Assembly (NCBI GenBank): GCA_949361645.1
Contig: OX442436.1
Location: 5,447,886 to 5,511,885, forward strand
Length of the DNA: 64,000 bases
Source of the DNA: Spongilla lacustris
Lineage: Eukaryota; Porifera; Demospongiae; Spongillida; Spongillidae
Direction: 5' to 3'
Shown here: in pieces, positions 61,911 to 64,000 of the stretch
Layout of the letters: every line of letters starts with the position of its first letter
Position numbering within the stretch: position 1 is the stretch's first letter
Program-made: the position numbers and the translations under genes
Notes under the pieces: model-generated
Databases searched by the model: none
What the model was told of the DNA's origin: nothing
What the model saw: the letters and a program-made list of their open reading frames with translations, nothing else

Positions 61911-64000
61911 ACATAACACACATACACATGTACACACACACGTACACACACATGTACACACATAACACACACACACACACACATGTACACACATGTACAC
62001 ACACATGCACACACACACACATAAGCATAAATATATTAACCCTATCTCCACTCAGGGACAGACAGGGTCTTCCAACGTATCGTTTGTCTCTGCAGACCAG
62101 GGAGCAACACATCAGACGTGAGAAGGCTACTAGTAACATCTGCACAGCCCAGGTGAGGTTATGTGGAGGGGGATAGGAGGCCTCTAGTAACATCTGCACA
62201 GCCCAGGTGAGGTTATGTGGAGGGGGATAGGAGGCCTCTAGTAACATCTGCACAGCCCAGGTGAGGTTATGTGGAGGGGGATAGGAGGCCTCTAGTAACA
62301 TCTGCACAGCCCAGGTGAGGTTATGTGGAGGGGGATAGGAGGCCTCTAGTAACATCTGCACAGCCCAGGTGAGGTTATGTGGAGGGGGATAGGAGGCCTC
62401 TAGTAACATCTGCACAGCCCAGGTGAGGTTATGTGGAGGGGGATAGGAGGCCTCTAGTAACATCTGCACAGCCCAGGTGAGGTTATGTGGAGGGGGATAG
62501 GAGGCCTCTAGTAACATCTGCACAGCCCAGGTGAGGTTATGTGGAGGGGGATAGGAGGCCTCTAGTAACATCTGCACAGCCCAGGTGAGGTTATGTGGAG
62601 GGGCCTCTAGTAACACCTGCACAGCCCAGGTGAGGTTATGTGGAGGGGGGATAGGAGGCCTCTAGTAACATCTGCACAGCCCAGGTGAGGTTATGTGGAG
62701 GGGGGATAGGAGGCCTCTAGTAACATCTGCACAGCCCAGGTGAGGTTATGTGGAGGGGGATAGGAGGCCTCTAGTAACATCTGCACAGCCCAGGTGAGGT
62801 TATGTGGAGGGGGATAGGAGGCCTCTAGTAACATCTGCACAGCCCAGGTGAGGTTATGTGGAGGGGGATAGGAGGCCTCTAGTAACATCTGCACAGCCCA
62901 GGTGAGGTTATGTGGAGGGGGATAGGAGGCCTCTAGTAACATTTGCACAGCCCAGGTGAGGTTATGTGGAGGGGGGATAGGAGGCCTCTAGTAACACCTG
63001 CACAGCCCAGGTGAGGTTATGTGGAGGGGGGATAGGAGGCCTCTAGTAACATCTGCACAGAGTAAGGACTAAGTAAGGGACAGGCCTATTGACACTCAAC
63101 AGTATCAGCAACTCTGTTGTTCTTGCCCTTGTTATATTTTATGTAAGGCTGCGTGCATCTTTAGTTATTTGAAAGCAAATTATTCCTGTTTCAAATTACA
63201 GGTGATTTTAAATATGTTTTGTTATGGTGCTTTATTCAATGATTTTCAAAACATATTTCCATGATCCTTTGTGATGCGTATTGCTTAGAGGTGTGAACGT
63301 TCACATTTCGTGGCAAAGGATTGGTGTGTGAAATGTTGCATTTTAGTTACATCTTGTCTGGAATGAAATGTAGGAAATTTCATGATACGCGTCACCCGAA
63401 ATAAGTGGAAATTCCACTTGTATACTGGAGCACATGTTAACCCACAGTGCACATAAATGTAACTGTTGGAATTTGCTGTGAATCAGTTCATATTAGGCAT
63501 GCAGTAGAATGGAGGGAGGTGCTGTTGGTGGGTGGAGCTAGAATTAGAATGACATGTGCCTGGTGTAAATTAAATTCATACCAGCCATGTGACCACACAT
63601 TCTGAGCAGACACCAAATTTCATGATTGGATTGCCCTTGATTGTAACCTCTGGACATGGACAGTTCACAAAAATAAGAGCTGTTATTTGCGATACTGCGA
63701 GACCACACCCTTGTGTTTATTTTCCCCTCCTCCTCCTCCTCCCCATCCTTGTCCCCCAGGCTCTTCTTGCTAACATATCGGCCCTATACGCCATCTACCA
63801 TGGACCGGCTGGACTGAAGGCCATAGCTAAGCGAGTACACCTCACCACTGTGGTCCTTGCAGAGGGTAAGAACAGCTTTGTCATTTCGTACACTTTTTTT
63901 AATTACATATTTTTTTCTTTTCCCTTCTCCATTTTTCTGTCCTCCTAGCTCTGCGTCGTCAAGGACACACTGTACACACGGGTGCATTTTTTGACACTAT
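55887..64000 (+). CDS. GLDC: Glycine dehydrogenase (decarboxylating), P-protein of the glycine cleavage system; first ten exons, cut by window edge
   Basis: Mitochondrial PLP enzyme that decarboxylates glycine and loads the aminomethyl group onto H-protein. Exons: 55887-56066, 56336-56414, 56828-56963, 57624-57788, 58092-58326, 60660-60771, 61765-61849, 62056-62152, 63760-63865, 63949-64000. They join in phase to about 416 residues of the usual roughly 1000. Residues 1-27 are Arg/Leu/Ser-rich without acids, as in a mitochondrial presequence. Family motifs in order: FAKRHIGPSEGDVQEML, NIRLNRELKL, YRSYIGSGYYNC, ITQYTPYQAELAQGRLESL, NFQTMVCDLTGL, ASLLDEATAAAEAM, TDLLALTMLKPPGELGADIA, YGGPHAAFFAVK, PGRIVGQTWD, LQTREQHIRREKATSNICTA, YAIYHGPAGL. 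The PLP lysine lies beyond the window. Intron 1 has a GC donor. No frame breaks seen. Confidence 0.95.
56428..56539 (+). repeat. CA microsatellite at the start of GLDC intron 2
   Basis: An ACAC run with two or three TGCACA breaks begins about 14 bases after the exon 2 donor (GTAAGT at 56415). Confidence 0.9.
57228..57456. repeat. 38-bp minisatellite in GLDC intron 3
   Basis: Six units of TGCACTTATGGAGGTGTAGG plus GGGTGGAGCTGACAAACG. Near-identical units indicate recent expansion. Confidence 0.9.
57772..57855 (+). repeat. 47-bp duplication of the GLDC exon 4 3' end and donor
   Basis: CATGGCTCTCTGCTTCAG plus GTAACAAC and the following CTCCTAATA(C/T)CATAGCTCC occur twice. The first donor (57789) gives the conserved frame (CFR-QFK). 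The second (57836) would add 47 nt with an immediate in-frame stop (TAA). Confidence 0.88.
58700..59035. repeat. Two minisatellites in GLDC intron 5
   Basis: About 28-bp units around CCCCTGGAGGTCATGGTAAC (58715-58870), then 16-bp units of GGTGACCTTACACTGA (58895-59030), eight copies or so. Confidence 0.85.
59683..59818. repeat. 47-bp tandem triplication in GLDC intron 5
   Basis: Three near-perfect copies of GCTCGCACGCTCCAATACTC plus CATGACTTGGCTGGGCTCCACACATAT (split here for length). Confidence 0.85.
60164..60362. repeat. GT/TATG-rich microsatellite in GLDC intron 5
   Basis: Mixed TGTATGTG and TGTGCATG repeats about 300 bp before exon 6. They give Cys/Met/Val repeat frames only. Confidence 0.9.
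60772..60985 (+). repeat. 33-bp minisatellite starting at the GLDC exon 6 donor
   Basis: The donor text GTGAGTGCTGATGTGATGTG starts at 60772, and the array of GGGGTCCAAGGGA plus GTGTGCTGATGTGATGTG units follows directly, six copies. The last copy restores GTGAGTGCTGATG exactly (60961). Confidence 0.88.
61385..61762 (+). repeat. 27-bp pyrimidine minisatellite running into the GLDC exon 7 acceptor
   Basis: About 13 units of CATCTTGGCCCTCCACTCCC plus TCCTCCC end only a few bases before CTCACAG at 61764. The array functions in effect as a polypyrimidine tract of more than 350 bases, broken by TTGG. Confidence 0.9.
61858..62025 (+). repeat. CA-rich microsatellite at the start of GLDC intron 7
   Basis: GCACACAC repeats with CGCACA, CATACA and CATGTACA variants begin about eight bases after the exon 7 donor (61850) and fill most of the 206-nt intron. 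Confidence 0.9.
62125..63060 (+). repeat. 54-bp minisatellite made of exon 8 end plus 5' splice site, about 17 units
   Basis: Each unit carries CTAGTAACATCTGCACAG plus CCCAG, then GTGAGGTTATGTGGAGGGGG and ATAGGAGGC. The first unit is the true end of GLDC exon 8 (ATSNICTAQ, donor at 62153). The others differ from it by one or two bases or by an extra G. One unit (about 62582-62630) is shortened by about 10 bases. The last copy ends at CTGCACAG and continues AGTAAGG. The minus-strand Leu/Pro/Trp repeat frames are artefacts. Confidence 0.97.
63061..63759 (+). other. GLDC intron 8, unique part
   Basis: AT-rich intron sequence ending in a strong pyrimidine tract and acceptor (TTGTCCCCCAG). No other feature was recognised. 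Confidence 0.6.

What the first reader, a model, noticed from the sequence alone, without database searches (positions are those of the whole stretch)
62125..63060. About 17 tandem copies of an exon end with its 5' splice site
The minisatellite unit contains the last 23-28 bases of GLDC exon 8 followed by a full GTGAGG donor. The transcript therefore offers the spliceosome an array of near-identical donors every 54 nt. The true exon 8 frame hits a stop in the first repeated segment, so use of a downstream donor would break the protein. Either the first site wins strictly, or aberrant isoforms or recursive-type removal of repeats occur.
Basis: seen in the sequence. Interest (0 to 1): 0.78.

Follow-up and report, generated by a model that had tools for sequence, protein, structure and literature searches.

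The report
Tandem splice-donor minisatellite in sponge GLDC
In a sponge gene for a glycine-degrading enzyme, the last stretch of one exon and its splice site are repeated seventeen times into the intron; the arrangement is known from a few human genes, and several other genes of this sponge show it too.

Summary
TRF finds a 54-nt unit x 17.3 at 62130-63060. It holds 17 perfect AG|GTGAGG donors at 62153-63011; 12 of 16 spacings are 54 nt, three are 55, one is 45. Copy 1 is the true coding end of GLDC exon 8: joined to exon 9 it aligns without a gap to 7 of 7 chosen homologues. Use of donor 2 adds an in-frame stop. No other locus of the 248.6-Mb assembly matched; the nearest GLDC protein is a demosponge's. 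The anatomy is not new: the human CBS 31-bp VNTR, c.1444_1467+7(16_21), is also exon end plus donor, and a minisatellite supplies donors in IFI6. New here is recurrence within one genome: of 23 donor arrays that I read, 12 start at exon-like ends, among them IMP4 (42 units), ATRX-like, COPS2 and SLC30 genes. Donor motifs are not enriched in arrays overall: a scrambled motif scores higher. I read this as ordinary minisatellite growth, tolerated because the 5'-most donor wins. That rule is inferred; no RNA was available.

The parts
62056..62152 (+). GLDC exon 8 (97 nt), ending ...EKATSNICTAQ
   Evidence: GT-AG boundaries, gap-free junction with 7 of 7 chosen homologues
62130..63060 (+). minisatellite, 54-nt unit x 17.3: last 23 nt of exon 8, 6-nt donor, 25 further nt of intron
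62153..62158 (+). natural donor CAG|GTGAGG of exon 8; computed U1 pairing -11.6 kcal/mol, lowest of the 9 GLDC donors in the window (exon 6: -11.5)
62207..63016 (+). 16 further AG|GTGAGG donors, each identical over -3 to +6
63043..63060 (+). last, cut-short copy, ending CACAG and followed by AGTAAGG
63061..63759 (+). rest of intron 8, no TRF array, ending in a pyrimidine tract and the acceptor of exon 9
63760..63865 (+). GLDC exon 9 (ALLANISALYAIYHG...)
57770..57864 (+). two-copy tandem duplication (47 nt) of the GLDC exon 4 end (19 nt) plus donor CAG|GTAACA
60766..60983 (+). 31-nt x 7 array starting at the GLDC exon 6 end and donor; first and last copies GTGAGT, the five between GTGTGC

Best explanation
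A minisatellite whose founding unit happened to straddle the 3' end of GLDC exon 8 and its 5' splice site. It grew into the intron by slippage or unequal exchange. Growth was tolerated because the coding copy stays 5'-most and splicing keeps using that donor: exon definition holds the exon at 97 nt, while the other 16 donors lie within a 1607-nt intron and are removed with it. The same has happened at other exon ends in this array-rich sponge genome. Shown: the array, its register, the conserved junction, the recurrence, the lack of enrichment. Inferred: which donor is used, the growth mechanism, neutrality.
For: Array and donors. First donor to exon 9 is gap-free in 7 of 7 chosen homologues. 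In IMP4, joining the first of 42 units' donors to the next exon is gap-free over 96 of 96 residues of IMP4 in PDB 7mq8; the joined carrier exons match Mito_carr across the junction, E 9e-20. Using donor 2 would break the frame in 13 of 14 arrayed exon ends. Arrays are common anyway: TRF covers 12.7% of the window, 8.1% on average of 16 further 10-kb stretches, and 0-79% of each of ten GLDC introns. Donor motif not enriched: 1023 three-copy matches against 1411 for a scrambled motif. Some downstream donors decay: GT lost in 8 of 30 copies at L033.
Against: No RNA, reads or population data. The control read backwards gave only 235 matches, so the enrichment result depends on the control; matches also overlap, one array giving many. 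Over -3 to +6 the donor positions match the unit consensus better than other positions in 6 of 9 arrays and worse in 3; the differences are small but do not prove neutrality. In GLDC all 17 donors are intact. For duplicated donors of equal strength the intron-proximal one is often preferred in reporters (recalled), which would predict downstream use.
Confidence: 0.66

Rival explanations
1. Donor choice is leaky: donors 2-4 are used part of the time, giving stop-containing mRNAs that are degraded, so that allele length tunes GLDC level (as the CBS title suggests for human CBS).
For: All 17 donors are identical over -3 to +6 and strong: exon 8 scores 9.0 leave-one-out, second of 12 GLDC donors after exon 6 at 10.0; donor 2 adds an in-frame stop; the title of Lievers et al. 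2001 links the CBS VNTR to reduced CBS activity (reference list); a paper citing Turri et al. 1995 says two downstream repeat units serve as donors in IFI6.
Against: No RNA here. IMP4, with 42 units and a frame-breaking unit, is an essential ribosome factor in other organisms (recalled), which speaks against much leakage.
Confidence: 0.21
2. Recursive or self-healing splicing: each unit is GT...AG, so pieces of the array are spliced out stepwise, or mis-spliced mRNAs are re-spliced, always rebuilding CCCAG|GTGAGG.
For: Unit starts GT and ends AG in register with the exon end. Fission-yeast introns spanning 24-bp AGGT repeats are told in a paper of which I read passages.
Against: The best array AGs score 1.5-1.8, below all 11 true GLDC acceptors and below the 95th percentile (2.2) of 351 intronic AGs; no pyrimidine tract by eye.
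Confidence: 0.06
3. The array acts as a multi-site U1 platform that strengthens exon 8 definition or guards against premature polyadenylation.
For: Lowest computed U1 pairing energy among the 9 GLDC donors in the window, repeated 17 times; donor positions slightly better kept than the rest in 6 of 9 arrays.
Against: Donor positions less well kept in the other 3 (L029, L033, L035); the donor motif is not enriched in arrays genome-wide.
Confidence: 0.05
4. Assembly artefact: copy number inflated or collapsed.
For: No reads were available to check.
Against: Length and base variants among copies; single locus in a 51-contig assembly; similar arrays of different units at other genes.
Confidence: 0.02

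Closest known systems
Human CBS 31-bp VNTR, c.1444_1467+7(16_21) (PMC2630376, passages; PMC1395315, table passage; Lievers et al. 2001, title only)
   Same: By its name the unit is the last 24 nt of an exon plus the first 7 nt of its intron, i.e. exon end plus donor; 16-21 copies; a metabolic enzyme gene
   Different: 31-nt unit, polymorphic in humans; here 54 nt with 25 nt beyond the first 6 intronic bases; polymorphism untested; in this sponge several genes have such arrays
[quoted passage not shown] title in reference lists; paper not held)
   Same: Tandem donors at an exon end; two downstream repeat units reported as donors (PMC4526556, passage)
   Different: Use of several donors is reported there; here not tested
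Intron gain by tandem duplication of AGGT (Rogers 1989; Hellsten 2011; fission-yeast 24-bp arrays, Zhu & Niu 2013), as told in PMC4974935 (passages)
   Same: AG|GT-bearing segment repeated in tandem, giving GT...AG units
   Different: There the repeats supply both ends of a new intron; here the acceptor lies about 700 nt beyond the array
Tandem repeats at exon-intron boundaries of human segmental duplications (PMC2812944, passages)
   Same: Minisatellites at exon-intron boundaries that can change gene structure
   Different: Those are primate-specific paralogues with exon or intron changes; here conserved genes with the exon kept

Membership tests
Exon-end/5' splice-site VNTR (CBS type) | repeat unit contains the end of a coding exon and its donor | tested here: met
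Exon-end/5' splice-site VNTR (CBS type) | many tandem copies extending into the intron | tested here: met
   17 donors
Exon-end/5' splice-site VNTR (CBS type) | copy number varies between individuals | not testable with these tools
   one assembly only
Multiple-donor minisatellite (IFI6 type) | more than one of the donors is used in mRNA | not testable with these tools
   no RNA data
Intron gain by AGGT tandem duplication | unit begins with GT and ends with AG | tested here: met
   unit written GT...AG
Intron gain by AGGT tandem duplication | the repeats form both ends of the intron | tested here: not met
   acceptor of exon 9 ends at 63759, about 700 nt past the array
Recursive splicing (ratchet points) | AG|GT with acceptor-grade pyrimidine tract | tested here: not met
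   AG|GT present, acceptor score 1.5 against 3.6-19.5 for true acceptors (matrix of only 11 sites)
Dispersed intron-like element (introner) | copies at many places in the genome | tested here: not met
   17 matches, all at this locus

The most novel reading that the evidence does not exclude
In this sponge, exon-end donor arrays are a standing class of loci (dozens or more), in conserved genes such as IMP4, ATRX, COPS2 and GLDC. Its spliceosome picks the 5'-most of up to about 42 near-identical donors with great fidelity, a strict rule opposite to the intron-proximal preference seen with duplicated donors in reporters (recalled). The genome is then a ready set of natural experiments on 5' splice-site choice.
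Probability: 0.35. Interest if true: 0.72.

Novelty: new member of a known kind. Interest (0 to 1): 0.52.

Why it matters
How a spliceosome chooses among equal donors is usually studied in engineered reporters (recalled). Here one animal genome offers natural arrays of near-identical donors, from two copies at GLDC exon 4 to 42 units at IMP4, at conserved exon ends, where using even the second donor breaks the protein in 13 of 14 cases. RNA from this sponge would measure the fidelity of 5'-most choice directly, against unit length and copy number. It also fits the view that the human CBS and IFI6 cases are instances of a general, tolerated outcome of minisatellite growth.

Tried and rejected
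Donor-specific seeding of minisatellites: first suggested by 1023 against 235 matches, then rejected, because a scrambled motif of the same composition gave 1411 and its reverse 946. Counting clusters by eye in the two cut listings agrees: in the first 16.3 Mb of contig C1 the donor pattern shows 3 clusters and the scrambled one 10. Single CAGGTRAG sites number 19456 against 14387 reversed, so a share of them are probably real donors, and 12 of 23 arrays at exon-like ends is no clear excess. Selection on downstream donors: mixed, donor positions better kept in 6 of 9 arrays and worse in 3. Recursive splicing: weak acceptors. A mobile element: single locus. Donor-acceptor asymmetry: in 10 GLDC introns, 2 donors and no acceptor lie fully inside TRF arrays, too few to judge; the genome-wide acceptor-array search did not complete. 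Literature: searches for competing identical donors gave none or 28 papers, 10 listed, of which I read passages of one, nothing usable; minisatellite, splice donor, intron and sponge together gave one review on human repeats; of 151 papers the 10 listed held no 'sponge genome', and I read passages of one of them, on a C. elegans minisatellite near alternative splicing, without donor arrays; one search showed only a reference. Of 23 clusters, 11 showed no recognisable exon: L032, L036, L037, L038, L040, L041, L042, L048, L049, L050, L053. The kynurenine-aminotransferase name for L052 is recalled; a PDB search found nothing. A PDB search with the first carrier exon alone also found nothing. The carrier exon of L035 has an extra C in a C run upstream, by eye. 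L051 looks decayed.

Full report
What was claimed and what is there. TRF reports period 54, 17.3 copies, 62130-63060. A direct scan finds 17 AGGTGAGG donors from 62153 to 63011; 12 of the 16 spacings are 54 nt, three are 55 and one is 45; an 18th copy is cut short and ends CACAG. Copies vary slightly: C/T changes in copies 10, 16 and 17, and the length of a G run.

The gene. Nine GLDC exons lie on the + strand at 55887-63865, with GT-AG introns except for a GC donor after exon 1; the joined protein matches Pfam GDC-P, E 4e-166. Further exons are seen beyond the window (by eye). The exon 8-9 junction...EKATSNICTAQ|ALLAN..., is gap-free against 7 of 7 homologues that I chose from the 120 listed, including Halichondria, Amphimedon, amphioxus and two rodents. 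So copy 1 is the ancestral coding copy and donor 1 the productive one. Using donor 2 adds VRLCGGG*.

Strength. The array donor pairs with U1 at -11.6 kcal/mol, lowest of the 9 GLDC donors in the window; exon 6 has -11.5. On a matrix of 12 GLDC donors exon 8 scores 9.0 leave-one-out, second to exon 6 at 10.0 (range 3.2-10.0); 10.2 if its own site is in the matrix. The unit also starts GT and ends AG, but its best AGs score 1.5-1.8 against 3.6-19.5 for 11 true acceptors, so acceptor use inside the array looks unlikely.

Uniqueness and surroundings. In the 248.6-Mb assembly the 17 matches found to exon 8 end plus donor are all at this locus. Two other GLDC exon ends are also caught in tandem repeats: exon 4 (47 nt x 2) and exon 6 (31 nt x 7). 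GLDC introns are full of arrays, 0 to 79% of each of ten introns, so this is not surprising.

Recurrence in the genome. A pattern of three CAGGTRAG at spacings of 18-48 nt gave 579+444 matches, with 130+105 for the pattern read backwards; a CAGGTAAG-only pattern gave 177+59 with 30+6. Both listings are cut at about 100 rows and ordered by contig. I read the 14 clusters visible in the first listing and the 9 new ones of the second. Twelve of 23 start at an exon-like end, judged by eye and by short-fragment searches. They are an ATRX-like helicase (L029; 36 of 36 residues align up to the donor, E 9e-9); IMP4 (L031; 44 of 44, E 1e-14; 96 of 96 when joined to the next exon, E 6e-40; 42 units of 22 nt, all beginning GT, 31 GTGAGG and 11 GTGGGG); a methionine-synthase-reductase-like gene (L033; residues 3-27 of 29, E 0.004; FAD_binding_1 E 4e-4, under Pfam's cut-off); two SLC30 zinc-transporter paralogues (L034: 49 of 49, E 3e-17; L043, whose 148-nt exon differs at 9 places); a mitochondrial carrier (L035; joined exons E 9e-20); an EGF-like protein (L039; EGF_CA E 9e-5 on the next exon, under Pfam's cut-off); four COPS2-like copies, one of which looks decayed (L045, L046, L047, L051; 43 of 43, E 4e-14 for the L046 exon); and L052, which looks like a kynurenine aminotransferase (recalled; no hit). 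Eleven of 23 showed no recognisable exon.

Meaning of the recurrence. A scrambled motif (CAGTGRAG) in the same pattern gave 971+440 matches and its reverse 421+525. So arrays do not favour the donor motif; this genome simply has many minisatellites (TRF covers 8.1% on average of 16 stretches of 10 kb, range 0.3-43%) and some straddle exon ends. What is telling is that they are tolerated. Of 14 arrayed exon ends tested (three of GLDC, eleven others; L051 left out), 13 would gain a stop or a frameshift if the second donor were used; the exception is L039, with 15 in-frame nt. Conservation of downstream donors is mixed. Over -3 to +6 the donor is better kept than the rest in 6 of 9 arrays and worse in 3; in L033 the GT is clearly less kept (0.867 against 0.973). 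The SLC30 pair suggests that such an array can outlast a gene duplication, or is copied with it.

Mechanism. Best reading: minisatellite growth from a founding duplication that straddled the exon end, kept because exon definition holds the 97-nt exon between its own acceptor and the first donor, while the rest lies in a 1607-nt intron. The growth mechanism and the first-donor rule are inferences. Leaky use of a few downstream donors, degraded by decay, is the main rival.

Known kind. The human CBS 31-bp VNTR is written c.1444_1467+7(16_21): by that name the last 24 nt of an exon plus 7 intronic nt, 16-21 copies (PMC2630376, passages); a table in PMC1395315 places it at exon 13-intron 13. The same CBS paper tells that a 68-bp duplication of an intron 7/exon 8 junction still gives normal mRNA. 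IFI6 has a minisatellite that provides several donors (title of Turri et al. 1995 in reference lists; a citing sentence in PMC4526556; paper not held). AGGT tandem duplication as a source of introns, with fission-yeast arrays, is told in PMC4974935 (passages). So the GLDC array is a new member of a known kind. I saw no report of such arrays across a sponge genome in the searches; that is a limited search.

Limits. No RNA, no reads, one assembly, truncated listings, exon calls by eye plus short-fragment searches. A control search for arrays at acceptors did not complete, and a protein search for a second GLDC copy did not run.

Noticed in passing
window 25368-25854: 37-nt tandem array (13 copies) that reads SSTSGVQQGDPL, like a retroelement reverse-transcriptase motif (recalled), turned into a minisatellite.
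   Followed up: no
window 16567-17537 and 35132-35653: A 20-nt x 49 array lies in an open stretch before a fibronectin-III-like exon on the - strand; the similar stretch in the second region lacks the array: an expanded and an unexpanded version in one window.
   Followed up: no
window 26396-26650: 34-nt array with CAGGTAAGGGG on the + strand and no exon seen upstream.
   Followed up: partly
window 38375-42430: Open frame of 1351 aa on the + strand that looks like a Ty3/Gypsy-type retrotransposon polyprotein (recalled motifs).
   Followed up: no
window 7452-8223: GTGC repeated about 193 times, 99% matches.
   Followed up: no
L049 and L053: The same 24-nt unit (GTAAGAGGGAAGGAGGGGTCCCAG) forms arrays on two different contigs with no exon seen upstream: a dispersed minisatellite.
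   Followed up: no
L045, L046, L047, L051: At least four copies of a COPS2-like gene, on two contigs, all with a 30-nt array at the same exon end.
   Followed up: partly
window 56064-56072: GLDC exon 1 ends with a GC donor (CAG|GCAAGT).
   Followed up: no
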